A program made the position numbers and the translations under genes. From Chloracidobacterium sp. N (GTDB lineage Bacteria; Acidobacteriota; Blastocatellia; Chloracidobacteriales; Chloracidobacteriaceae), in assembly GCF_018304765.1 (NCBI RefSeq), contig NZ_CP072643.1:744001-808000 (forward strand): a stretch of 64,000 nt of DNA, read 5' to 3'. This document shows, one piece after another, positions 6,102 through 18,834 of this stretch (its first letter is position 1; the number at the start of each line of letters is the position of its first letter). The notes under the pieces were generated by a model. The model ran no database searches. It saw only the letters and a program-made list of their open reading frames with translations, and was not told the DNA's origin.

Positions 6102-6148
6102 GCTCCATTGAAGCCTTGCAAAGGTTTCAATGGAGCTGCTTTTTTTTC
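6102..6148 (+). terminator. Intrinsic terminator of the cyclase gene, built on a degenerate CRISPR repeat
   Basis: GCTCCATTGAA (6102-6112) pairs with TTCAATGGAGC (6126-6136), and an inner CCTT/AAGG stem extends the hairpin. A run of eight T follows after TGC. The right arm and T-run belong to the first, decayed CRISPR repeat (6124-6160), and the left arm is an inverted fragment of the same repeat. Confidence 0.65.
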
Positions 6149-6527
6149 AAAGCGGAAAACGGGGTAGGAAATAGCGGACAGGGGGTAGGAAATAGTGGAG
6201 CTTCGATAGGGCTGCTTTTTTCAAAGCGGAAAACTATTTTCTATTCCCTGTCCACTATCTGCTATGTCCGCGCTTCAATGGAGCCGCTTTTTTTCAAAGC
6301 GGAAAACGTTCGGGCGCAGGAGGCCGGATTATATCCGGCAGAAGGCTTCAATGGAGCCGCTTTTTTTCAAAGCGGAAAACTCGTGTCATGGGTCTTGAAA
6401 AAGACCCCTTGAATTGCTTCAATGGAGCCGCTTTTTTTCAAAGCGGAAAACTACCCGCGTCAGAGGTGCGCGTCCTCTGACGCGCACTCCGCTTCAATGG
6501 AGCCGCTTTTTTTTCAAAGCGGAAAAC
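6124..6527 (-). CRISPR. Short type I-G CRISPR array, six repeats and five spacers
   Basis: Repeats lie at 6124-6160, 6200-6234, 6272-6307, 6345-6380, 6416-6451 and 6491-6527 (35-37 bp). On the plus strand they begin GCTTCAATGGAGCCGC and end AAAGCGGAAAAC, with a CCGCTTT/AAAGCGG stem. Read on the minus strand they end in ATTGAAGC, the usual crRNA 5' handle, so transcription is probably leftward from the cas2 side. The first two repeats are degenerate, which marks 6124 as the old trailer end and agrees with that direction. Spacers are 6161-6199, 6235-6271, 6308-6344, 6381-6415 and 6452-6490; their odd composition is described in the findings. Confidence 0.93.
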
Positions 6528-7063: not shown

Positions 7064-8737
7064 TCAGCGAGTGACAAAGGGAATGTAGCGTGGAATTTCA
7101 CCCATCAGCGTACGCGCCAGAAGTCGCGCCTGAATTTCAAAAATCCGCCGATAGCTGACCTGATAGTTGAAAACCGGATGTGTGACCAACTGATCCAGCC
7201 GACGCTCAAAAGCCTCGATGAAGGTCTTTCTACCACGCGGTGTCAATGCCACTGCTTCGCCCCGCTGGATGAAATCCGAAGGCCCGATTTCACCATTGTT
7301 GATAACCGTGATGACTACCGAATCCGCTACCAAAGGGCGAAACTCCTCCATCAGGTCAAGAGCCAAAGCCGGTCTTCCATAGCGCGGCTGGTGGTAAAAA
7401 CCAAGGTGAGGATCAAAGCCAACGCCAATGACGGCCACCATCATTTCCTTGACCAAAAGACTGTACGCAAAGGAAAGCAAGGCATTGACCGGGTCCTTGG
7501 GCGGACGCCGGTTGCGCCCGGTAAAATCAAATGGCGGCTCATTGCCCGGCTTGAACATTGCCGGGAAATGACGGAAATACTCGCGCGCTGCATTGCCCTC
7601 AATTCCCAAAAGCGAAGACAGTTCCTCACACCTCTCAACTGCACCACGCGAGGCCGCCAACTGGGACAACACATCTGGATCAAGTTGACGCCCATTTCGC
7701 CGCAAAAGAAGACGGCTGTTACGGATTTTTCCACTTACAAAAGCCTTCGCCAGCCTGAGACAAAACTCCGGATTTCCGGCCGCCTGAAACTGCCGCTGAC
7801 GTAATTCAATGTTTTTGTGTGGTGGGGCCGTCGTCACAGCCTGCAACCAGCCACCATAGCTCAGGTGCAAGACGGGAACCTCCCGGTTCACCAAAGCCCG
7901 AAGTGCCTGCGCCGAAATCTGTACGTTGCCAAAAAGGTTGACCTGGCTGATTTCAACCAACCGCACCGCATCTACGGCCTGTCCTTTGTCGCGGATTTCA
8001 AGTACGGTGCCATTGAGGCCTAACGCATAACCCTGACCCTGAACATAGACGGCCTTGTTGTCGTCACGCGCCGGTACCAGTCGCCGTACTTCCCTGCCGG
8101 TTGGAACCGGCAACGCGACTTCAGCCGCTTCGGCTGCAGACGGTAGAACCGTTGCTGCCGTGGCTTCTGAAGCCCTGTCATCAACCTTGTCATCGCCGCG
8201 CAGGAAATTGATTTCATCCGGCAGACAAATACCGACCAGAGAACAGCGTGGGCACTTGTTGGAGTTGACCAACGGCGGAGGTATCGTACCGGAAACCGCC
8301 AAAGCCCGCGCCGCTGCCAAAAGCTGCTTTGTCCGCGCGATGAGAACCGGCGTGAAATCCACCCGGACACGGGTTTTATCGGCTGCGTAGTAGATAATCC
8401 CATAACCAGAGCGATAGCCATTGGCGCGCAGCAAAAGCCCCTGCAAACAAACCTGAATGCGCTCCGGTTCCCAAGCGCCTTCCAGCAGGTCCGGCGCGGC
8501 ACCCCGTTTGTAATCCACCGGCACCACCTGCCCGTCGTCACTTTCAAGCAGGTCAATCACCGCCACAGCGCCAAGCTCCGGGCAGCCAACCTCCACCGAA
8601 CGCGCATGGATTTTGCTCTCCGCCGTGATTTCGGCCGGCACCGGCGCCGGCCCGCCCGGCCGATCAACGCGCCGATGGACAAAACGTCCTTCCAGAACGT
8701 CAACATTCTCCGCCCACTCACGCTGTACATACTCAAG
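7064..8737 (-). CDS. cas4-cas1: Cas4-Cas1 fusion, large 3' part, separated from its start by an IS insertion
   Basis: The frame is open from 8737 but has lost its start. It begins LEYVQREWAENVDVLEGRF, the continuation of a Cas4 N-terminus now found at 10107-10190. The Cas4 part keeps the RecB-type motif VPVDYKRG and the C-terminal cysteines in CPRCSLVGIC. The Cas1 part carries the catalytic E in LLGIEGNAAREYF, H in GFYHQPRYG and D in ALDLMEEF. Cas4-Cas1 fusions are a hallmark of type I-G/I-U loci, where they select PAM-correct prespacers and integrate them. Restored, the protein would be 585 aa. An internal GTG at 8641 could still give a protein with Cas1 but a truncated Cas4. Confidence 0.9.
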   Translation of the reverse strand, partial: LEYVQREWAENVDVLEGRFVHRRVDRPGGPAPVPAEITAESKIHARSVEVGCPELGAVAVIDLLESDDGQVVPVDYKRGAAPDLLEGAWEPERIQVCLQGLLLRANGYRSGYGIIYYAADKTRVRVDFTPVLIARTKQLLAAARALAVSGTIPPPLVNSNKCPRCSLVGICLPDEINFLRGDDKVDDRASEATAATVLPSAAEAAEVALPVPTGREVRRLVPARDDNKAVYVQGQGYALGLNGTVLEIRDKGQAVDAVRLVEISQVNLFGNVQISAQALRALVNREVPVLHLSYGGWLQAVTTAPPHKNIELRQRQFQAAGNPEFCLRLAKAFVSGKIRNSRLLLRRNGRQLDPDVLSQLAASRGAVERCEELSSLLGIEGNAAREYFRHFPAMFKPGNEPPFDFTGRNRRPPKDPVNALLSFAYSLLVKEMMVAVIGVGFDPHLGFYHQPRYGRPALALDLMEEFRPLVADSVVITVINNGEIGPSDFIQRGEAVALTPRGRKTFIEAFERRLDQLVTHPVFNYQVSYRRIFEIQARLLARTLMGEIPRYIPFVTR

Positions 8738-8860
8738 TTGACATACTCCCCTGCCTAAAGGCAGGGGATTCTTGTTCCTGGTTCTGCGAGCGCACTTACT
8801 TCATCAGGTTGCCCCTCTAAAGCAGCGGTGCATCTCTCCCCAAGCGTTCCCTCTTTCGAG
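8718..8860 (-). ncRNA. Predicted TnpB guide RNA (omega/reRNA) from the right end of the IS608-like element
   Basis: TnpB proteins use an RNA that overlaps the 3' end of tnpB, runs through the right-end hairpin and takes its guide from the DNA flanking the element. Here that guide would be minus-strand 8737-8718, CTTGAGTATGTACAGCGTGA, which is cas4 sequence. The right end and junction are seen directly; the RNA and its 5' boundary are inferred from the family. Confidence 0.4.
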
Positions 8861-10106
8861 GCAGTTCCCTTTTGCCCAAAGGTACTGTTTTGCCACTCCA
8901 TTCCCAAGATGCTTAGTCCCTTCTTGAGGATGTTCAAAGCCGCATTCCGGTCTCTGTCTGATTCAAATCCACATTGAGGACAACTATGGGTTCTGGTGGC
9001 CAAGGTTTTTACTACCATACGCCCACAGTTACTACAGTCCTGTGTGGTGTACTGCGGTGGTACGCTGACGACTGCCTTGTCCCACACCTTGCCGTAGTAG
9101 TCCAGCCACGCAGTGAATTGAGACCAGCCAGCATCATGAATGGATTTGGCAAGATGATGATTTTTGACCAGGTTCTTCACCTGCAAGTCTTCGTACACCA
9201 CGACATCGTGAGATGCCACCACGCACCGGGCTAACTTAATCACCCAGTCTTTACGCTGGCGTTGGACTTTCAGATGTGCTTTGCCCAGTCTTTTCTTTTG
9301 CTTGTGGTAGTTCCTGGATTGAGGTTTCGCCCCTTTCCTGAACTTCCTGCTCAACCTGCGCTGGTGGCGCTTTAGCCGCTTCTCTGCTTTCCGCAGATAC
9401 TTGGGACACTCTACAGGGTTGCCGTTCTGGTCGGTGTAGAAAGCCTTCAAGCCCAAGTCAATGCCAATCACATTGCCTGTGTATGCTCCCCGCTCTTTGC
9501 GCTCCACATCCAGGCAGAACTGGGCATAGTACCCATCTGCCCTGCGTATCACCCGCACCCGATTGATTTTGCAGTTCAGGATATGGTGTCTTGCCTCACC
9601 ATTGCAGTACAAGGCGAATGTTCCTGCGTTGAAGCCGTCGGTGAACGTGATGGACATGCCGTCAGGAGACAGCTTCCAGCCGGACAGCTTGTACTCGACC
9701 GACCGACAGTTCTTCTTGAACTGCGGATAGCCTTTCCTGACCGCCTTGTTTCTGCAGTTGGTATGGAACCGGGAAATGGAAGCCCAGGCTCGCTCTGCAC
9801 TTGCCTGCCTTGCCGCTGAGTTTAACTTCCTGGCAAAGTCAAACTCTTTGGCCAGGTCTTTGCAGTGGGCATAGAGAACAGCTTTGTTGACGCTCTTGTT
9901 GTCCATCCAGTACCGCACACATTTGTTTCTGACAAACTGTGTGGTACGGATGGCTTCATCCAGAGCGTGATACTGCTTTGCTGTCCCGTTGAGTAGCTTG
10001 GCTTCCATGACTCTCATACTGCTATTTTATCACAGGTTTGGCTTGATAAAACAGCGTGCGCCTTATATCCCTGCCCTAAAGTGCAGGGCTTTACGGCGTT
10101 TTTTCG
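8738..10106 (-). mobile_element. IS608-like IS200/IS605-family element (tnpB only) inserted in cas4-cas1
   Basis: The element is 1369 bp and lies in the minus orientation. The left end directly follows TTAC (10110-10107) and the right end finishes in TCAA (8741-8738). Both ends carry a hairpin (10069-10088 and 8748-8767). AAAG sits at the 5' foot of the left hairpin and GAAT at that of the right one; TTAC/AAAG and TCAA/GAAT are the cleavage and guide tetranucleotides known for IS608. Removing 8738-10106 joins the two cas4 parts in frame with no scar. There is no tnpA, so movement would need a TnpA supplied in trans. Confidence 0.9.
8755..10017 (-). CDS. tnpB: TnpB, RNA-guided nuclease of IS200/IS605 elements
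   Basis: The product is 420 aa and full length. The RuvC-like residues are all present: D in IGIDLGLKAFY, E in VVVYEDLQVKNL and D in SDRDRNAALNIL. Between the last two lies the zinc ribbon CSNCG...CPQCG. The N-terminal half has the OrfB helix-turn-helix-like part with many basic residues. TnpB cuts DNA matching its guide next to a target-adjacent motif and so promotes element retention. No clear Shine-Dalgarno precedes ATG 10017. The stop codon falls inside the right-end hairpin. Its base composition is more AT-rich than neighbouring cas3, in line with recent arrival. Confidence 0.93.
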   Translation of the reverse strand: MRVMEAKLLNGTAKQYHALDEAIRTTQFVRNKCVRYWMDNKSVNKAVLYAHCKDLAKEFDFARKLNSAARQASAERAWASISRFHTNCRNKAVRKGYPQFKKNCRSVEYKLSGWKLSPDGMSITFTDGFNAGTFALYCNGEARHHILNCKINRVRVIRRADGYYAQFCLDVERKERGAYTGNVIGIDLGLKAFYTDQNGNPVECPKYLRKAEKRLKRHQRRLSRKFRKGAKPQSRNYHKQKKRLGKAHLKVQRQRKDWVIKLARCVVASHDVVVYEDLQVKNLVKNHHLAKSIHDAGWSQFTAWLDYYGKVWDKAVVSVPPQYTTQDCSNCGRMVVKTLATRTHSCPQCGFESDRDRNAALNILKKGLSILGMEWQNSTFGQKGTASKEGTLGERCTAALEGQPDEVSALAEPGTRIPCL

Positions 10107-10190
10107 GTAAAACAGACGTGGGCAGTACACATACTCATTGAGCATCCGGGCCGGAATGAGGTCCGGTGTGGCAAGGAAGTTTTCTTTCAT
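10107..10190 (-). pseudogene. cas4-cas1: 5' fragment of cas4-cas1, cut off by the IS608-like insertion
   Basis: This stretch encodes 28 codons from ATG 10190, ending in MLNEYVYCPRLFY, the Cas4 N-terminal motif with the first iron-sulphur cysteine. It breaks at TTAC and resumes in the same frame at 8737 after the 1369-bp element. It is too short to function alone. The start is preceded only by a weak GAAAG. Confidence 0.88.
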
Positions 10191-10411: not shown

Positions 10412-11323
10412 TTAGGCGATCTTGCGCGCCGGCGTGAAGTTCGGTGTCTTGCCGACCAAAATCCGCCGTACGCGATACACCGCCGCAATCCCCATGTGAC
10501 GCAACCGCCGCCGGTCGCTCTCCCCGATGGGATCATCCTGAAGTGGCGCCAACGCCAGCAGGGAAGGGATGAGATCAGGCGGAACAAAGGGCGTCCAGAT
10601 GGGCCACGTCCACCGCGTCTCCCGGCTGCCAAACCCGCTGAATCCAAGCGTTTTGAGCGCGCCACCCACAGGCCAGACGGTGAACCACGCAAACGCCTCA
10701 ATTGCCAACCGGTTGGCACCCAACATCGTGCCCCGCCGCCTGCGGGTCGGGTCGCCAGAGGGCTTATGCCACTGATAGGCATGCCGCCGGTCCTCCGAAG
10801 GGTCGAGATGTAGGGATTGATTGTCCATCGGGTCGGCGTAATCCCACGGCTTGAACAGCGTCCGGTCCAGATGACTGCGCGTGGTTCTTCCCAAAATGGA
10901 CTCGATATTGCCTACGTGATAATCCCGGCGCGTTGTCTGAAGCTGGCTCGTCGCCTCTGCCGGCGCCAGATTGCTGGCGATCGCGGCCAGAAAATCAGCC
11001 TCCCGACGATGACCAACAGCCGCTGCCTGACGTACCTGCAAAAACACATTCCCCGGCTGTTGTTTGACTTCTTCGTAAAGCCGCGCCGGATGCTGGTTCA
11101 GTGACTTGACCAGCGTTTTATCCAGCCGGTCCAGCAGGTCGGCCTGACGGATTGGCGCTGAGCTGCCCAGTTGGGCTACCCACCCGCCCTCGTCAGTCGT
11201 CCACGCCAGACACAAATCCGGCAGGCATTCCCGCAAAGCATTCACCAGCCCCAGCGCCGCCAGAAAACCCAGCGGCGTTGTGCCATCCAATCCGCGCAAC
11301 ACAATGTGGTGATTCGGTGTCAT
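10412..11323 (-). CDS. csb3: Type I-G Cascade subunit, Csb3/Cas8-like
   Basis: The product is 303 aa. VLRGLDGTTPLGFLAALGLVNAL at the N-terminus resembles the start shared by Csb3/Csx17-type proteins, which take the Cas8 place in type I-G/I-U effectors. Further marks are RRDYHVGNIESIL and WFTVWPVGGALKTLGFSG. I base the name on position between cas3 and cas4-cas1, on size (Csb3-like, far shorter than Csx17) and on this N-terminus; catalytic motifs are not expected. It starts 41 bp downstream of cas3. The GC-rich repeat begins one base after its stop. Confidence 0.7.
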   Translation of the reverse strand: MTPNHHIVLRGLDGTTPLGFLAALGLVNALRECLPDLCLAWTTDEGGWVAQLGSSAPIRQADLLDRLDKTLVKSLNQHPARLYEEVKQQPGNVFLQVRQAAAVGHRREADFLAAIASNLAPAEATSQLQTTRRDYHVGNIESILGRTTRSHLDRTLFKPWDYADPMDNQSLHLDPSEDRRHAYQWHKPSGDPTRRRRGTMLGANRLAIEAFAWFTVWPVGGALKTLGFSGFGSRETRWTWPIWTPFVPPDLIPSLLALAPLQDDPIGESDRRRLRHMGIAAVYRVRRILVGKTPNFTPARKIA

Positions 11324-11364
11324 CGGTTTCTCCCAAGTCAGTCAAAAGCCATTTCCTCTCCCGG

Positions 11365-14300
11365 TCATGACACAAGACCGGCTTCTTCATCGGCGCTGGA
11401 CTGGTGGTCAGCCAGGCGCAGAATCGTCTCCAGATACGCCGCGCCCCACCAACCGAAACGGCGCTGCATCCGCCAGAAACGCGCGCCAATGCCCGAATCG
11501 AGCCGGTGCGGCGGCGCTTTTTCACGCCAGGCATGCGATACCGCCACGGTGTACGACTGGCCCAAAAGCTCGGCCGTGAGGGCAACGTCAGGCGCTTCGA
11601 GGTCCACCACGACCGGGGCCAGCGGGCGGCCCCGTCCGTGGTGTGTGCCAATGAGGTAAAGGATGAGATCGAGTTCAGTCCCTGCGGGCGGGACGCCCAC
11701 ATTCCCAGGCTCTGCGGGCAGGATGCCCGCGTTCCCAGGCTTTGCGGGCGGGACGCCCACACTCCCAAGGAGGGTTTCCAACATCTGCACTGAAAGCATC
11801 TCGTGCCGGAAACCGGCCGGCAGCCCGGCCCGCTCGTGCGCCTGCCGCCGTTCGAGCGGCGTCAATGGCAAGCCGTCCGACTTGGCCAGCAAACCCAGCG
11901 GGGAAGCCCCCAGCAGCCAGGTTTCCGTCCGGTCAGCACGCTGCAAAAGCGCCTGGAAGCGTTCATCCGCCTTGCCCCAGTCGTGGGCCTCGGCCGCCGC
12001 CAGAAACACTTCCTCCCGAATGTTCAGCGGCAGCGCCCGTACCGTACGCTGGATTTCATCCCGGACATGCCGGCTGTGCGCCGCCAGCGTCACCGGCTCG
12101 GCGCTGGCAATCCAGGAACGCTCATCTTCGCCTTCGTCCATCAGCGGCAGCGACCAGTCCGCCCTCCCGGCCAGTCGCTTCCGGGTGGTCAGCACGTAGC
12201 CCCGGCCGTCCGGGTAAGGCGTACGAAGCAGGCCCAGCTTTGGGTCAGCCAACTGGTGCAGCGCCGTGCGCAGGGCGTCAGCCGGCCAGTGCTGAGGCAA
12301 CTTGTCTTCCGCTCCGGTTTGCAGGTCGTCAGCCAGAGCGCGCAACGCTTCGCGCCAGTCCTCCACCCCGAACACGGTTTCCGGCTCGGTCAGGCGGGTG
12401 AAGAGTTCCTGCAGAGCCGGCCACTCGCGGTCAAAAAGATGTGGGTGCAGCCGTACGACAGGGCGGTTGCGGGCTGTCACAGAAGCAGCTTCGGCTACAT
12501 CTGGCGAGGCGTCCGCCGGCAGATGTCCCAACACCTCCCAGCCGCCGGCCGCCACCGGCAGGATCAGGGTATCGCCCGGATGCAGGTCACCCACTGCCGT
12601 CAAAAGCCGGTTGTCCGCCAGACCACGCCACAGCAGGCCACGGCGCTCAGGCTTGACGGCACTTCCGTCTGTAGCTTCCGGTTTGGCATCCGTCCCGGCT
12701 GTTTCGCCGCCAAGCTCCAAAAGGTCAGCCGCATCGTCTTTGCCAGTCTCCTCCGCACCGGTCAGCCACCGGCGCACCACCGACATCGGTACGGTCATGC
12801 ACTCGGTTGCCGTCGGCGGCAGCAGGCTGACGACTTCACTCCAGTCATCCGGCGGAAAAGCATCGAGGTCAGCCCGCCAGCACACCTGCACGTCCGGTTC
12901 GCCGGGCTGCGGGCCATGCAGCAACTGCGCCACGTTGGGTTCCAGCGCCGGGCGGGGACTCGTCTGGCAGAGCAAGTCCAGATGCGCCGGCAGCAGCACC
13001 GCAGGTTCGCGCCGGGCGGCAGGCGCCAGACATTCCACGGGCAGCCCCTGGCCGTTCAGGTAAGCGTCAAAAGCGTCAATGCCAAAATTCACGTTTTTGG
13101 ATTGCCCCCACTTGGTAAGCCATTCCCAGGTTTTGGGCAGGGCGTCGCCATAGACAGGATCGGGCTTTTTGGGATTGAGCGCCTTTACTTCGATGAACAC
13201 CACGGCCAAGGCTGCAATGGGCCGACCGCGGCGGTTGAGCCGTCCGAACCGCTGCCGGAGCGCGTCCAGTGAGGCGCATTCCGTCAGCAGCACGTCAAAG
13301 TCATAGTCGGCGCCGACTTCAAGGCACTGGGTCGCCACCACAAAGCTGAGCTGCGCGCTTTCGTCAGGCCGGTTAGGGCCAATGAGCGGAATCAAGCGCC
13401 GCTGCTGGGCGTCGCGGTCAACCGGACGCATCGGGCCGATGACGAGTTCCACCGGGGCATCGGGAAAGGCTTCGCAGAGCAGCCGGTGGACGGCGCGGGC
13501 CGTCGCCACCCGGTTGACAATGATGCCAACAGCCGCTTTGCCCAGTTGACCGGCTTCCGCCATCGCCTCGGCTTCAGAAACAAGGTCTTTCGGAAGATCG
13601 GAGACAACCCTGAGCTGCACCAGTTTGTCAGCACCCAGAACGGCAGCCAGGCGTGGCGTGCGCCGGTCGGTATGGTCCAGTCGGAAGGCCGCCTGGCCGG
13701 CGGCTTTGGGCGGCGTCGCCGTCATGGCCACGAGCCGAAAAGGGGACACACCGATGGCTTCTTCTGCCCACCGCTGCGGGTCAAGGTAGTCCCGGACGGC
13801 ATCCAGGGTTTGCTGGAAAGGTTTGCTGATGTGGGCTTCATCGAGAAACACCAGGCTGTCGTAGGCGGCCAGACTGGCGTGAATCGGAGCCGCGTGGGCC
13901 GAAACACCGTAGCCGCGAAAGAGCAGCCGCGAGCCAAACTGGTCAATGGTTGTGCAGACCACCATGGGCTGCGTCACCGACCGGGCCCAGCGATTGTCGC
14001 GGTACAGACCGCCGCGCAGTTCCAGCACATCGAGCGGTGGCGCGCTTTCCGGGCGGAGGGTTGAAAGCTGCCGCAAAGCCGCCGCAACCTTGTGCAGCGT
14101 CGGCCACCGGGTCGGGGAAGCTTCCGCTTCCAGCAGTCTCCCGGCCAGGCGCAGGGCCCGCTCGTAAGCGGCATCCACAATGACGCGCCGGTTGACGCAA
14201 AAAAACACCCGGCGCGCGGCCGTGCGCGCCGGCGGTTCCAGCGCCGCCTGACAGGCGAGAGCGAACACGGCAATGTCAATCACGGCCGTTTTGCCGCTGC

Positions 14301-14436
14301 CGGTGGGCAGATCGAGCACCGGCGGCCAGGTTCCAGCTACGGCTGCGGCCGCCAGTCGCCGCTGCCACGGGTAGGGATCACAGTCGTGAGCTTCGCGGAA
14401 AAAAGCGTCAAAGTCGTCAATACCAACCTGCGTCAT
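11365..14436 (-). CDS. cas3: CRISPR-associated helicase-nuclease Cas3 (type I-G, C-terminal HD)
   Basis: The product is 1023 aa. Helicase motifs come first: DLPTGSGKTAV (Walker A, about residue 43), LVFLDEAHISKPF (DEAH, about 195), and QRFGRLNRRGR as motif VI. The HD nuclease lies at the C-terminus (AEAHDWGKADERF, about 817), the domain order typical of type I-G/I-U. Cas3 unwinds and degrades DNA held by Cascade. Residues about 889-918 are a translated copy of the genome's GC-rich dispersed repeat (GVPPAKPGNAGILPA), placed in frame within the HD half. The gene follows csb2 with a 3-nt gap, so translation is probably coupled. Confidence 0.93.
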   Translation of the reverse strand: MTQVGIDDFDAFFREAHDCDPYPWQRRLAAAAVAGTWPPVLDLPTGSGKTAVIDIAVFALACQAALEPPARTAARRVFFCVNRRVIVDAAYERALRLAGRLLEAEASPTRWPTLHKVAAALRQLSTLRPESAPPLDVLELRGGLYRDNRWARSVTQPMVVCTTIDQFGSRLLFRGYGVSAHAAPIHASLAAYDSLVFLDEAHISKPFQQTLDAVRDYLDPQRWAEEAIGVSPFRLVAMTATPPKAAGQAAFRLDHTDRRTPRLAAVLGADKLVQLRVVSDLPKDLVSEAEAMAEAGQLGKAAVGIIVNRVATARAVHRLLCEAFPDAPVELVIGPMRPVDRDAQQRRLIPLIGPNRPDESAQLSFVVATQCLEVGADYDFDVLLTECASLDALRQRFGRLNRRGRPIAALAVVFIEVKALNPKKPDPVYGDALPKTWEWLTKWGQSKNVNFGIDAFDAYLNGQGLPVECLAPAARREPAVLLPAHLDLLCQTSPRPALEPNVAQLLHGPQPGEPDVQVCWRADLDAFPPDDWSEVVSLLPPTATECMTVPMSVVRRWLTGAEETGKDDAADLLELGGETAGTDAKPEATDGSAVKPERRGLLWRGLADNRLLTAVGDLHPGDTLILPVAAGGWEVLGHLPADASPDVAEAASVTARNRPVVRLHPHLFDREWPALQELFTRLTEPETVFGVEDWREALRALADDLQTGAEDKLPQHWPADALRTALHQLADPKLGLLRTPYPDGRGYVLTTRKRLAGRADWSLPLMDEGEDERSWIASAEPVTLAAHSRHVRDEIQRTVRALPLNIREEVFLAAAEAHDWGKADERFQALLQRADRTETWLLGASPLGLLAKSDGLPLTPLERRQAHERAGLPAGFRHEMLSVQMLETLLGSVGVPPAKPGNAGILPAEPGNVGVPPAGTELDLILYLIGTHHGRGRPLAPVVVDLEAPDVALTAELLGQSYTVAVSHAWREKAPPHRLDSGIGARFWRMQRRFGWWGAAYLETILRLADHQSSADEEAGLVS
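11682..11767. repeat. Dispersed GC-rich repeat inside the cas3 coding sequence
   Basis: Three units of about 28-30 bp (TGCGGGCGGGACGCCCAC followed by ATTCCCAGG or similar) match the intergenic family at 10245-10410. The frame stays open and encodes alternating GVPPA and GILPA words. Confidence 0.85.
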
Positions 14437-14439
14437 GGG

Positions 14440-15990
14440 CTAGCTCCGTTTGGGAACAAAAAAATCGAGGGGTTTGAACAGGCCGTAGCCGAGAAAGCGG
14501 CCAGCGCCGAGCAGAACCGGGCCAACGACCGGCTCGGCAAAACGCAAGAAGACATGAACCTGTGGCTTTGCAGCGCGTGCGCCTTTGAGCAGGTAGGGGG
14601 GAAATCCGTCGCCCAGCCTGGCCTGCGCCGGCGGGGAAGCGCCGCGCACGGGACGCTCTTTGGCAATGGCGCGGGGAGCACCCGGAGTCCAGGCCGTTGT
14701 GCCGAAGTCAATTTCAACCGGCTCCGGCAGCCCGGCGTACTGGCAGGCCTCAAAGAGAATGGAGCCGACTTCGTATTCCCAGTTGGCGCGCTCGGTCAGG
14801 CGGTTGGCTTTGGGGAAGCGGTCGAGCACGACCGGCGTCACGCTGGCCCAGCGTTTGGCTCCACGGGGAAAGGCCGTCCAGGTTTCAGGCTGGAGCGTGA
14901 GGCGGGTGTCGTCCCAGGCACGCTTGCGCAGCACCCAGACGCCCAGCCGGCCGAGCCGGAGACTGACATCCGCCGGCTTGCCCTGCTGGTTGACAAAGAG
15001 CGGCCCGATGACGCGGCCGCGCTCGCGGCGGTCAATCTCCGTGGGGAACGCCAGCGCCACGCCGAGCAACCGCCCATCAGCATATTCGTAGCCCACGAAA
15101 GGCAGAGGGAGCAGCGCCAGATGTCCGCGCCCGTCGGCCAGCGGTTGGCCCTGGGCGTCATGGCCGCTCACCCATGCCGGCGGCGGCTGCGGGCAGTGCG
15201 CCATCAGGGTGTCCCGGAGCGCCTGCATCACCTGAAGGCTGGCGGTGACCGGCAGCGCCGGGCCGTCAACTTGTGTCAACACCAGAAGGTCGCGGTCGAA
15301 AACCGTTGTGTTGGTCATAGGCGGCGGTGTGAAGGTGGCGGCACGATACCCGGCGGCCAGACCGACCAGCGGACGCCGGCCAGCCTGAAACGTTTCCCGC
15401 AGGCGTTCGAGTGAAGGTCCCTGGAAGATACGGCGGAGGTGCAGGTCAGCCAACCCGCTGTCCGCCTCTTCCGTCGGCAGCCAGCCAGCAAAGCTGTCCT
15501 CCGGTGTGGGCGGTCTTTCGGCGACCCACATCTGCACCAGTGAAGCCGAGTGTCCGAGGCGCGTCACCCTGGCGCAGAGCTGCGTCAGCGCCGGTCGGTA
15601 GCGGTCGCTGTCCGGGGCTTCCGGCCAGTGCAGGAAGCATGGCCGGTCGCCAACCCAGACCGCCGGAAATGTGCGCGGCTGCTTGCTGCGTGCCAGCGGG
15701 GCGGATTGCAGCAGGGCCGTGCCTTCGGCCTTGTCGTTGACCGGCACGTAGGCGGTGACAACGTGCCGGCGGCCGCCAGCCTGGACAGGAAGCCACACCT
15801 GCGGGTCAGGCAGCGTGCGCAGCCACTCCAGCGCCTGACCTTCGGCGGGGTCCTCGCCGGTCTCGAAAAAGGCGGCCGCCAGCGCCAGCCACACCCGCGC
15901 CGGATGTGGCGGCCACTCCGGGGCGTCGCGCCGCGCCGGGTCGGTGGCGCGGGCGTAGCCCGTCAGGTAGGTCCAAGCCAACGTCAGCAT
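14440..15990 (-). CDS. csb2: Type I-G protein Csb2 (GSU0054 family, Cas5/Cas6-like)
   Basis: The product is 516 aa. The start MLTLAWTYLTGYARATDP and the segment HPARVWLALAAAFFET match the Csb2/GSU0054 family, in which Cas5 and Cas6 roles are combined: binding the crRNA 5' handle and processing the transcript. RPLVGLAAGYRAATF, LALLPLPFVGYEYADGRLLGVALAFP and a Gly-rich C-terminal RLGDGFPPYLLKGARAAKP look RAMP-like. ATG 15990 has AGGAGGAG upstream, overlapping the csb1 stop region, so earlier in-frame starts are not used. It is the second gene of the cas operon. Confidence 0.85.
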   Translation of the reverse strand: MLTLAWTYLTGYARATDPARRDAPEWPPHPARVWLALAAAFFETGEDPAEGQALEWLRTLPDPQVWLPVQAGGRRHVVTAYVPVNDKAEGTALLQSAPLARSKQPRTFPAVWVGDRPCFLHWPEAPDSDRYRPALTQLCARVTRLGHSASLVQMWVAERPPTPEDSFAGWLPTEEADSGLADLHLRRIFQGPSLERLRETFQAGRRPLVGLAAGYRAATFTPPPMTNTTVFDRDLLVLTQVDGPALPVTASLQVMQALRDTLMAHCPQPPPAWVSGHDAQGQPLADGRGHLALLPLPFVGYEYADGRLLGVALAFPTEIDRRERGRVIGPLFVNQQGKPADVSLRLGRLGVWVLRKRAWDDTRLTLQPETWTAFPRGAKRWASVTPVVLDRFPKANRLTERANWEYEVGSILFEACQYAGLPEPVEIDFGTTAWTPGAPRAIAKERPVRGASPPAQARLGDGFPPYLLKGARAAKPQVHVFLRFAEPVVGPVLLGAGRFLGYGLFKPLDFFVPKRS

Positions 15991-15995
15991 GGCGG

Positions 15996-17315
15996 TTACT
16001 CCTCCTGGGTTCCCTGGCTCTGCGCCAGTTGTTGGCTTTTGACGACGAGCTTGACGAGTTCCGGCGCCGGCTGAAGCTGGAGCGGGGTGGTGCGCCACGG
16101 AAGGCCACACTTCCGGGCTTCGTCAACGGCTTCCATGAACAGCCGGAGCGCGGCTTCCGCATCGAGAACGATGTCTGACTGAATTTCACCGGGGCGGCCC
16201 AGCAGTTCCCACTTCAACGGCTCCTGCGGCCAGAGCAGGCAGCGGGAACGCAAATCCAGCCCGGCGTCGTCGGCCAGAATGGCCGCACAGAGGCCCAGCG
16301 CCGCCAGTACGGTCCACGCCGCTTCATCGGCCTTGGGGTTGTGCTGACCATTGATGGGGAAGCGGAGCCGGCGCAGGGCCGGCAGCGACAGGACGATGCT
16401 CTGTTCGGCGTAGTCAATGGTGACGCCGCCGCCCAGGAATTCACCCTGCCGGTCACGTTCGGAGATGGTTGGGGTGACATTGCCGTGATTGGCTTCTGAA
16501 GGGCGTCCGGTGGCTTCTGAAGTGCGTCCGGTACCGAGCAGAACGTGCCTGCCCTTGTTGTCCTTGACGGCTTTCCCAGGGTCAAGCGTCCATCCGAGCG
16601 GTTCGGTGGGCGGCGTCCGGTACAGCGGCCCGGCCTTGAGCTGGATGCCCAGCGGGTCAATCCGGCTGCTGGTTTTCGCGCCCAGAACGGCGTTGATGCC
16701 CACGATCTCGCTCACCATGGCGCGCTCGAATTTGGCGCCCAGGCCGCCTTTGGGGCCGGTGGAATCCCACATGCCAAACAGAAGCGCTGTTGGGCACAGC
16801 TCGAACAAAGGCGTGGCATGGTGGGCTGCCGCTTCACGAAGCCGGCGTCCATAGGAGGATTCCTGCTTGACGTTGGACGAACGAAACGGCTTCCCCTGTT
16901 CTTGAATCACGACGCTGTCGCGCAGGATGGCATCCACGATGCGGTGTGGGGCCTGCAGGGACGACACCCTGCCGATGGGTTCCAGAAGCCGCATGTCTTC
17001 CGGCTGGCCATTGCCGGGGAAGTAGGGCGTGAAATCCACTTCGACCAGGGGAAGGGCAAGGCGGCCGTCATCCACGGCCTGCTGGAGTGCCTCTTCCATG
17101 CGGTTGGCCTGGGATTGCACGGAATCCATCAGGACGCAGCGTACCGGATGGTCGTAACCCGGCATCCGGCGTTCTTCGAGGGCGTAGCGTCCGCCTTCGT
17201 AGGTTGGGGGAAAGACCTTGGTGCCAGGGCCGCCAGCCGGTTGGAGACGAAGACGGCAGCGCAGGGCCGTCGCCGTGCGGACGGCCTGCTGGAGTTGCTG
17301 AAGTGAAAGTGACAT
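15996..17315 (-). CDS. csb1: Type I-G backbone protein Csb1/Cas7 (GSU0053 family)
   Basis: The product is 439 aa and is the first gene of the leftward cas operon. QSQANRMEEAL, LEPIGRVSSLQAPHRIVDAILRDS and LCPTALLFGMWDSTGPKGGLGAKF are recognisable Csb1 segments; this RAMP polymerises along the crRNA. ATG 17315 (MSLSLQQLQQAV) has GAGGTC upstream; an ATG at 17390 would add 25 residues and would lie inside the duplicated 128-bp segment. A Thr/Ser/Glu-Ala stretch near residues 285-300 contains a small direct repeat (GGACGCACTTCAGAAGCCAC-like), probably a loop. Confidence 0.87.
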   Translation of the reverse strand: MSLSLQQLQQAVRTATALRCRLRLQPAGGPGTKVFPPTYEGGRYALEERRMPGYDHPVRCVLMDSVQSQANRMEEALQQAVDDGRLALPLVEVDFTPYFPGNGQPEDMRLLEPIGRVSSLQAPHRIVDAILRDSVVIQEQGKPFRSSNVKQESSYGRRLREAAAHHATPLFELCPTALLFGMWDSTGPKGGLGAKFERAMVSEIVGINAVLGAKTSSRIDPLGIQLKAGPLYRTPPTEPLGWTLDPGKAVKDNKGRHVLLGTGRTSEATGRPSEANHGNVTPTISERDRQGEFLGGGVTIDYAEQSIVLSLPALRRLRFPINGQHNPKADEAAWTVLAALGLCAAILADDAGLDLRSRCLLWPQEPLKWELLGRPGEIQSDIVLDAEAALRLFMEAVDEARKCGLPWRTTPLQLQPAPELVKLVVKSQQLAQSQGTQEE

Positions 17316-17706
17316 AGCGTTGACCTCGCTGGGTTTGGATTCGGCTGCCGACAGCAGCCAGTCCGATATGGTAGGGACGACAGTGGACAAGAACGGGGCA
17401 ACGTCCTAAGCTGTCCGCCACAGGTTCAAAGCATCAGCCGCAACGGTTGGGCGTACGCAAAGGCCACGCCCGCCGGGGTCGTGCTGTGCGACAAAAGCTT
17501 TCAGGCTGAGGCGGGGAGAAAACCGATACGGGCTGAATCCAAAGGAAAGTGGTCGCTGGCTAACTGTGTTTTGAGCCGACAGCGCCTTCGGTACCGGGCT
17601 TGTGGTACTCCGGCGACAGCACCCTTTCCGGTACATTGCCTGACACTGCATCAAGCGGGATGCACCGCAAACGGCACGTCCCTTGCGCCAAGCGTCAGCC
17701 ATTACA
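17316..17706. other. Divergent control region between the cas operon and the HNH gene
   Basis: This 391-bp gap holds copy 1 of the 128-bp duplication and otherwise no gene I can support. It should carry the leftward cas promoter and the rightward HNH promoter, but no convincing -35/-10 pair stood out. Confidence 0.5.
17382..17509 (+). repeat. 128-bp direct repeat, copy 1
   Basis: The segment starts AGTGGACAAGAACGGGGCAA and ends AAAGCTTTCAGGCTGA. It matches 18835-18962 with about seven mismatches and no gap. It contains GGGCGT/ACGCCC and GTCG/CGAC dyads that could be operator half-sites. It lies just upstream of csb1. Confidence 0.9.
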
Positions 17707-18774
17707 ATGAGCGTTCAAGCACTCTCAGACATTACATTCGATGAGCAGGATGCCAATCTCTTTCTCGTTGACGACGCTCAACTGCGGGCGGATGCGCTCA
17801 AACACTCAGTTTTGCCGCGCCTGCGCGTGGTGATGAACGTCGCAATTGCCTGCATCCGCGAGATTTACGGTATCGAGGCGCTTGAAGATTCCATCGTCAG
17901 CGTCTATCCCAACTTCCGGCAGAAGCGTGACCGGGAACTGCTCATCAAGTATGAATCCGTCTTTGTCGGTCTCGGTGGGCAGCGCAAAGCCAAGTGGCCG
18001 GGCTTTGCGCGCAAAGATGGAAAACCCGTTCAAATCCTGCCCTTCCGATTTGCTTTTGTGCTTGACCAATATGGCGTTTTCACCGTTTTGGAGAATGCGT
18101 GGTTGAAGGGACTTGACACGCGATCTTTTGAAATGCTGCTCCGCTTTCACATTGATAACGAACACAAGGTCAATCCCTTGTGTTTCGCGTCGGGCATGGC
18201 ACCGGGTATTCCGTACTTGGAAGACTTGCCGCTCCTTGCACCACTCCGTGACGAATATCAACTCCGGTTGAAGCATAAGCTCTATGACAATCATTTCCTC
18301 GGTCACACTTATCACTTCCCGGTATCGGGAGACACTCTGGAGCAAATAGTGAATCGCTTCGCTTATTTCTTCCCCGTTTATGATTCATATATCCAGATGG
18401 CAAAAGGTTTGCCGATCCGGCTTGATGCACTTGTTGCGAAGCTGTCTGCCTGGCTGGAACGGGAGCTGGAGGAAACTGAGGAACAAACTGAATTGCCAGT
18501 GCCGGAAACGCTTGGAGTCCATGCTGCCCGGGCGGCAGAATCGAAAGTCCGCGTCATGCCTGCAATGCGCTGGCAGGTGTTCCAGCGGGATCAATGGAGA
18601 TGTGTTGCCTGTGGGCGAAGTTCACACGATGGAGCCATACTCCACGTTGACCACATCATTCCCCGCTCACGCGGTGGTCTTGATGCGCTCGAAAACTATC
18701 AGACACTCTGTGACATTTGTAACATTGGAAAAAGCAACAAGGATGCCACAGACCTGCGTAACAGGAAGGGCTGA
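17707..18774 (+). CDS. HNH endonuclease domain protein
   Basis: The product is 355 aa. The last 70 residues form an HNH module: CVACGRSS, HVDHIIPRSRGG, NYQTLCDICNIGKSNKD, with zinc-type cysteine pairs and catalytic histidines intact. The first 280 residues are of unknown function and contain no membrane segment. ATG 17707 is an inner start preferred to 17683 only because the first eight codons look like leader sequence; no clear Shine-Dalgarno is present. Its composition is visibly more AT-rich than the flanking genes. It sits between two copies of a 128-bp repeat, next to CRISPR-cas, so it is probably an acquired defence or mobile nuclease. Confidence 0.8.
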   Translation: MSVQALSDITFDEQDANLFLVDDAQLRADALKHSVLPRLRVVMNVAIACIREIYGIEALEDSIVSVYPNFRQKRDRELLIKYESVFVGLGGQRKAKWPGFARKDGKPVQILPFRFAFVLDQYGVFTVLENAWLKGLDTRSFEMLLRFHIDNEHKVNPLCFASGMAPGIPYLEDLPLLAPLRDEYQLRLKHKLYDNHFLGHTYHFPVSGDTLEQIVNRFAYFFPVYDSYIQMAKGLPIRLDALVAKLSAWLERELEETEEQTELPVPETLGVHAARAAESKVRVMPAMRWQVFQRDQWRCVACGRSSHDGAILHVDHIIPRSRGGLDALENYQTLCDICNIGKSNKDATDLRNRKG

Positions 18775-18834
18775 CAACCGCTTCAAAAGGGACGCGCCGA
18801 CAGTCAGTTTCGCCGTCTGTTTCCGCGCCACTTT

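What the first reader, a model, noticed from the sequence alone, without database searches (positions are those of the whole stretch)
7064..10190. Scarless IS608-like insertion splits cas4-cas1 between the CPRLFY motif and the rest
The 28-codon Cas4 start (10190-10107) and the remaining frame (from 8737) join perfectly when 8738-10106 is removed, giving 585 residues. The junctions are TTAC on the left and TCAA on the right, with AAAG and GAAT guides beside the end hairpins, exactly the IS608 rules. Spacer acquisition is therefore probably off but instantly reversible by precise excision, a possible phase switch for CRISPR adaptation. The short array with decayed repeats fits stalled acquisition.
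Basis: partly seen in the sequence, partly recalled or inferred. Interest (0 to 1): 0.82.

Follow-up and report, generated by a model that had tools for sequence, protein, structure and literature searches.

The report
Jumping gene splits CRISPR spacer-acquisition gene
A small mobile element carrying an RNA-guided nuclease (TnpB) has inserted without a scar into the gene a bacterium uses to record new viruses in one of its two CRISPR systems; the gene is clearly interrupted, but nothing found here suggests the cell can flip it back on, and the nuclease itself would be expected to oppose that.

Summary
A 1369-bp TnpB-only element (8738-10106, minus strand) of the IS608 group of IS200/IS605 sits in the fused cas4-cas1 of a type I-G CRISPR locus. 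It lies exactly 3' of TTAC, ends in TCAA, has AAAG and GAAT guides 5' of its two end hairpins, and has no target duplication. All 18 distinct insertion sites of this family in the genome and its sister obey the same rule. Five congeners carry the uninterrupted gene; in the sister the empty site is base-exact.

The 'instantly reversible phase switch' is not supported. The genome's only two Y1-type proteins look like vertically inherited REP-associated (RAYT) proteins, not a cognate TnpA. By known TnpB biology, an excised site (TTAC plus cas4-cas1 flank) would be this copy's own RNA-guided target, so TnpB should lock the insertion in.

Stalled acquisition is plausible for this system only. Its array has 6 repeats, with a mutated repeat next to the presumed leader, against 50, 84 and 91 in congeners. 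A second system in the same genome keeps an intact cas4-cas1 and at least 127 repeats. Insertion sequences inactivating cas genes is already published; this is a well-resolved new case.

The parts
10107..10190 (-). First 28 codons of cas4-cas1 (MKENFLATPDLIPARMLNEYVYCPRLFY), cut off from the rest
10107..10110 (-). TTAC target, left cleavage site CL and presumed TAM
   Evidence: IS608 rule PMC5934647
8738..10106 (-). TnpB-only IS608-group element, 1369 bp, no target duplication
10089..10092 (-). Left guide AAAG
   Evidence: equals IS608 GL
10069..10088 (-). Left-end hairpin CCCTGCACTTTAGGGCAGGG
   Evidence: folded in context, z -4.5
8755..10017 (-). tnpB, 420 aa, uninterrupted; RuvC D-E-D residues and zinc ribbon present
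8768..8771 (-). Right guide GAAT
   Evidence: equals IS608 GR
8748..8767 (-). Right-end hairpin CCCCTGCCTTTAGGCAGGGG
   Evidence: z -4.0
8738..8741 (-). TCAA, right cleavage site CR, last bases of the element
8718..8737 (-). Predicted guide segment of the TnpB omega-RNA (CTTGAGTATGTACAGCGTGA), which is cas4-cas1 coding sequence
   Evidence: position by analogy with ISDra2 (PMC8612924); inference. Weak sub-threshold Rfam HgcC match 8725-8817
7064..8737 (-). Rest of cas4-cas1 without stop or frameshift; longest conventional ORF starts at GTG 8641 and lacks the first 60 aa
6740..7060 (-). cas2
10412..17390 (-). Type I-G effector genes: Cas3-extension protein, cas3g, csb2 (cas5-6), csb1 (cas7g), all uninterrupted
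6123..6527 (.). Type I-G CRISPR array: 6 repeats (3 exact, 2 decayed at the distal end, 1 with an extra T at the cas2/presumed leader end)

Best explanation
A non-autonomous, TnpB-only member of the IS608 group of IS200/IS605 inserted into cas4-cas1 of a type I-G CRISPR-Cas locus in the lineage of this genome, after it split from its sister species. The family's closest relatives are cyanobacterial, so it probably came from mat cyanobacteria. Insertion followed the IS608 single-strand rule (3' of TTAC, no duplication). It removes the start and the first Fe-S cysteine motif (CPRLFY) of Cas4, so Cas4-dependent type I-G spacer acquisition is most likely lost or impaired while the effector genes stay intact. 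The insertion is scarless in principle, but the genome has no cognate TnpA to remove it. TnpB, guided by the cas4-cas1 flank, would be expected to cut any restored allele and reinstate the element. It is best read as a locked, selfish inactivation, not a switch. Shown: anatomy, boundaries, empty sites, copy family, absence of an IS608-type TnpA, constraint on TnpB. Inferred: loss of acquisition, TnpB targeting of the empty allele, direction of transfer.
For: IS608 boundary and guide sequences match exactly. Exact empty site in G001 and the intact gene in five congeners. Seven full-length copies in this genome and 14 in G001, with all 18 distinct sites at TTAC and only 3 sites shared, so sites turned over since the split. 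TnpB copies under purifying selection: mean pairwise dN/dS 0.20 over 10 open copies. Only two Y1-type proteins in the genome, both vertically shared with G001 and RAYT-like. The I-G array has 6 repeats here against 50, 84 and 91 in congeners, and at least 127 in the intact second system of the same genome; the repeat next to the presumed leader carries a 1-nt insertion not copied into its neighbour. TnpB cuts donor joints bearing its TAM (PMC8612924).
Against: A cognate TnpA existed at some point and could return by transfer; the RAYT-like Y1 protein L001 passes NCBI's IS200 transposase cut-off and is found only in the two genomes that carry this element family, so acting in trans is not excluded. 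The rest of cas4-cas1 shows no significant excess of nonsynonymous change (15 of 45 against 10 of 48; p=0.24), so it is either recently broken or partly functional. Array shortness is one genome's correlation. No TnpB activity or omega-RNA was measured.
Confidence: 0.82

Rival explanations
1. Reversible phase switch: precise excision by a Y1 transposase in trans restores cas4-cas1 in part of the population, so type I-G adaptation turns on and off.
For: The junction is scarless and in frame; IS608-type excision seals the donor precisely. A Y1 protein of the IS200 NCBIfam model is present.
Against: That Y1 protein is single-copy, syntenic with G001, surrounded by unrelated REP palindromes and only distantly like IS608 TnpA (39.6 bits). 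No TnpA is linked to any copy of this family seen here. TnpB would cut the excised allele. The array looks stalled, not intermittently active.
Confidence: 0.06
2. Cas1 is still made from the truncated frame (for example from GTG 8641, by read-through from tnpB) and acquires spacers without Cas4, so without PAM choice; adaptation is deranged, not off.
For: Cas1 and Cas2 frames are uninterrupted. In a related I-G Cas4/1 a Cas4 active-site mutant keeps Cas1 nuclease activity in vitro (PMC10504553). Spacers are odd: 3 of 5 hold hairpins of 7 bp or more against 11 of 221 in congeners, and one contains 31 nt of another array's CRISPR repeat.
Against: The extra-T repeat at the presumed leader end has not been copied, so no spacer was added there since that mutation. 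Spacer age relative to the insertion is unknown.
Confidence: 0.15
3. The locus was already inactive and decaying when the element landed; the insertion is a passenger, not a cause.
For: Other copies of the family lie in or near diverse genes, so landing in cas4-cas1 needs no special cause. Array age is unknown.
Against: All effector genes and cas2 are uninterrupted and conserved against G001.
Confidence: 0.25

Closest known systems
IS608 (ISHp608) of Helicobacter pylori, IS200/IS605 family
   Same: TTAC/TCAA cleavage sites, AAAG/GAAT guides, subterminal hairpins, no target duplication, tnpB
   Different: No tnpA in the element; TnpB-only; host is apparently a thermophilic acidobacterium and the nearest relatives are cyanobacterial
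ISDra2 TnpB of Deinococcus radiodurans
   Same: TnpB family with RuvC and zinc ribbon; target motif equals the presumed TAM; right end followed by the guide region
   Different: Only about 122 bits of similarity by sequence to the solved TnpB chains; presumed TAM TTAC instead of TTGAT; activity untested
IS insertions that inactivate cas genes (Nat Commun 2023, PMC10359306)
   Same: Natural transposition into a cas gene that disables CRISPR function
   Different: That paper's main text contains neither 'IS200' nor 'cas4'; here the insertion is scarless, hits an adaptation gene and carries a guided nuclease
Type I-G Cas4/1 fusion (Geobacter, Methanosarcina barkeri)
   Same: Fused Cas4-Cas1 with cas2 and the GSU0051/0053/0054-type effector set
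   Different: Split after codon 28 in this genome

Membership tests
IS200/IS605, IS608 group | Insertion 3' of TTAC, element ends TCAA, no target duplication | tested here: met
   18 of 18 sites
IS200/IS605, IS608 group | Guide tetranucleotides AAAG and GAAT 5' of end hairpins | tested here: met
IS200/IS605, IS608 group | Y1 transposase TnpA in the element | tested here: not met
   Element holds only tnpB; genome has two RAYT-like Y1 proteins. Described therefore as a non-autonomous TnpB-only (IS1341-type) relative that uses IS608-type ends, not as an autonomous IS608 element
TnpB RNA-guided nuclease | guided_TnpB profile, RuvC acidic residues, zinc ribbon | tested here: met
   NF040570 255 bits, cut-off 100; IGIDLG, VYEDL and ESDRDRNAALNI align with the top match, an AI-designed nuclease of the TnpB fold
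TnpB RNA-guided nuclease | RNA-guided cleavage next to the TAM | not testable with these tools
   needs a biochemical or plasmid-interference assay
Type I-G CRISPR-Cas | cas4g-cas1g fusion, cas2, cas3g, csb1, csb2 | tested here: met
   cas4-cas1 interrupted
Phase-variable switch | An enzyme in the cell that restores the gene | tested here: not met
   no IS608-type TnpA
Phase-variable switch | Both alleles present in one population | not testable with these tools
   one assembly per species; no reads

The most novel reading that the evidence does not exclude
The insertion makes TnpB an RNA-guided nuclease programmed against the host's own CRISPR adaptation gene: its omega-RNA guide would be the conserved FY|LEYVQREW coding segment, so it would cut intact cas4-cas1 alleles arriving by recombination and convert them to the interrupted form. 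That would be a homing, allele-locking drive that spreads loss of CRISPR adaptation.
Probability: 0.2. Interest if true: 0.72.

Novelty: new member of a known kind. Interest (0 to 1): 0.45.

Why it matters
It is an unusually clean natural case, with base-exact empty sites in a near relative, of a mobile TnpB element disabling the memory-writing step of a CRISPR system while leaving the effector genes and a second adaptation system intact. It makes two things testable: whether TnpB locks deleterious insertions in place, and whether losing Cas4 freezes or deranges a type I-G array.

Tried and rejected
TnpA near the family: neither this genome's copies nor the cyanobacterial relatives sampled showed an adjacent IS608-type TnpA (two hits in 80 loci, none placed as a partner), although the query TnpA used there was itself divergent. 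The strong Y1 gene in G001 (L068) belongs to a different tnpA+tnpB element with different ends and is absent here. Relaxed selection on the G000 branch of cas4-cas1: not significant. Elevated dS of cas4-cas1 relative to neighbouring genes: a patchy mosaic block at 7541-8420, not centred on the insertion, so not evidence of TnpB-driven conversion. Preference for CRISPR loci: other copies lie in or near varied genes, so none claimed. The predicted TAM plus guide target in viral contigs: no match. Array spacers in viral contigs: nothing beyond what an 18-nt palindrome gives by chance.

Full report
What is there. On the minus strand, cas4-cas1 starts at 10190 and reads MKENFLATPDLIPARMLNEYVYCPRLFY, then is interrupted at 10106 by a 1369-bp element ending at 8738, after which the frame continues to 7064. 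The joined frame is 585 aa. The remaining part matches NCBIfam cas4g_cas1g from profile position 55 (699 bits, cut-off 560), with Pfam Cas1 and Cas4 domains. The neighbours are cas2, a Cas3-extension protein, cas3g, csb2 and csb1, a type I-G set.

The element. It encodes only TnpB (420 aa; NF040570, 255 bits), with the RuvC residues and zinc ribbon aligned to the top match among solved structures, an AI-designed nuclease of the TnpB fold; natural TnpB chains follow at about 122 bits. Its left end follows TTAC and its right end is TCAA. AAAG and GAAT lie directly 5' of two hairpins that fold far better than shuffles (z -4.5 and -4.0). These four tetranucleotides are exactly CL, CR, GL and GR of IS608 (PMC5934647). 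The base after TTAC at the empty site is C, the IS608-preferred +1 base.

Not chance, and a mobile family. There are seven full-length copies in this genome and 14 in the sister genome G001 (five of those with altered right parts), plus fragments. All 18 distinct sites have TTAC before the left end; three sites are shared, the rest are private. The window copy is closest (97.7%) to a G001 copy at another site. Ten open copies give mean pairwise dN/dS 0.20, so TnpB has been maintained by selection. Within the genus only these two of seven genomes have the family, and 59 other genomes drawn from the phylum have none. The best matches elsewhere are cyanobacterial (up to 75% aa identity), several with the same GAAT...GGAGTATGTCAA right end, which suggests transfer from cyanobacteria.

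Empty site. Five congeners encode the uninterrupted Cas4-Cas1 with CPRLFY|LEY at the junction, all with TTTTAC|CT. In G001 the alignment is contiguous across the site with no footprint. By parsimony the insertion is derived in this genome's lineage. A scarless element cannot strictly exclude loss in the others.

Reversibility. IS608-type excision needs TnpA. Pfam Y1_Tnp finds two places in the genome. One (L001) is a 150-aa protein that passes NCBI's IS200 transposase cut-off but is only distantly like IS608 TnpA (39.6 bits). It is syntenic with G001 over 2.5 kb and surrounded by repeated palindromes unlike the element's hairpins, the signature of a REP-associated (RAYT) protein. The other (L002) lies in-frame inside a methylase-like ORF and looks like a RAYT (the labels RAYT and methylase are my reading, not a profile match). 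G001 also has a real IS605-type tnpA (L068), absent here and with different ends. In-trans action by L001 is not excluded, since it too occurs only in the two genomes with this family. TnpB is known to cut sites carrying its TAM and matching flank, and is proposed to make the donor joint recopy the element (PMC8612924). Here the predicted guide is CTTGAGTATGTACAGCGTGA, cas4-cas1 coding sequence, and the excised allele would be its perfect target. The alleles of G001 and G006 differ from the guide at 3 and 2 of 20 positions. Hence the element should resist reversion. This step is inferred.

Consequence. The insertion removes the first Fe-S cysteine motif of Cas4 and the native start; the longest conventional ORF left begins 60 aa in. 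Cas1 and Cas2 frames remain open. In vitro a related I-G Cas4/1 with a dead Cas4 active site keeps Cas1 nuclease activity (PMC10504553), so 'deranged' instead of 'off' is possible. The array has 6 repeats: 3 exact, 2 decayed at the distal end, and the one next to cas2 (presumed leader side, flank shared with G001) with an extra T that was not passed to its neighbour. Counts elsewhere are 50 in G001, 84 in G005 and 91 in G006. In the same genome a second, type I-MYXAN system has an intact fused cas4-cas1 (579 aa), a Cas2-like ORF and at least 127 repeats. This supports stalled type I-G acquisition, but it is a single-genome correlation, and the rest of cas4-cas1 shows no significant relaxation.

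Verdict. The switch reading is not. Insertion sequences knocking out cas genes is a published phenomenon (PMC10359306). What is distinctive is the scarless hit on an adaptation gene by an element whose nuclease would be guided by that very gene.

Noticed in passing
window 6381-6415 (spacer 4) and G001:C2:464322-464805 (L217): Spacer 4 of the type I-G array contains 31 nt identical to the repeat of a different CRISPR array in G001; that repeat occurs nowhere else in this genome.
   Followed up: partly
window 6160-6490: Three of the five I-G spacers contain hairpins of at least 7 bp, against 11 of 221 spacers in congeners (Fisher p=0.002); spacers 1 and 2 look like pieces of one short tandem repeat.
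   Followed up: partly
L086/L217 (G001:C2:464250-466205): In G001 a frameshifted copy of the same element has its right end inside a CRISPR spacer, so its predicted omega-RNA guide is a spacer fragment; its left flank is the right end of another IS605-type element.
   Followed up: partly
L002 (G000:C1:1397820-1401050): A Y1 domain that looks like a RAYT lies in-frame inside a long methylase-like open frame (1255 aa); the same arrangement is in G001.
   Followed up: no
window 17520-18834: About 1.3 kb holding an HNH-nuclease ORF (363 aa, 17683-18774) is missing from the otherwise collinear G001 locus.
   Followed up: no
window 7541-8420: The middle of cas4-cas1 is a block about 85-93% identical to G001 between flanks that are mostly 95-100% identical, suggesting recombination.
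   Followed up: partly
L034 / G000:C2:313379: One copy of the family has flanks that look like another tnpB/IscB-type element, i.e. nested insertions.
   Followed up: no
window 8725-8817, minus strand: Weak, sub-threshold Rfam match to HgcC RNA (22.4 bits, gathering 50) over the right end where the omega-RNA is expected.
   Followed up: no
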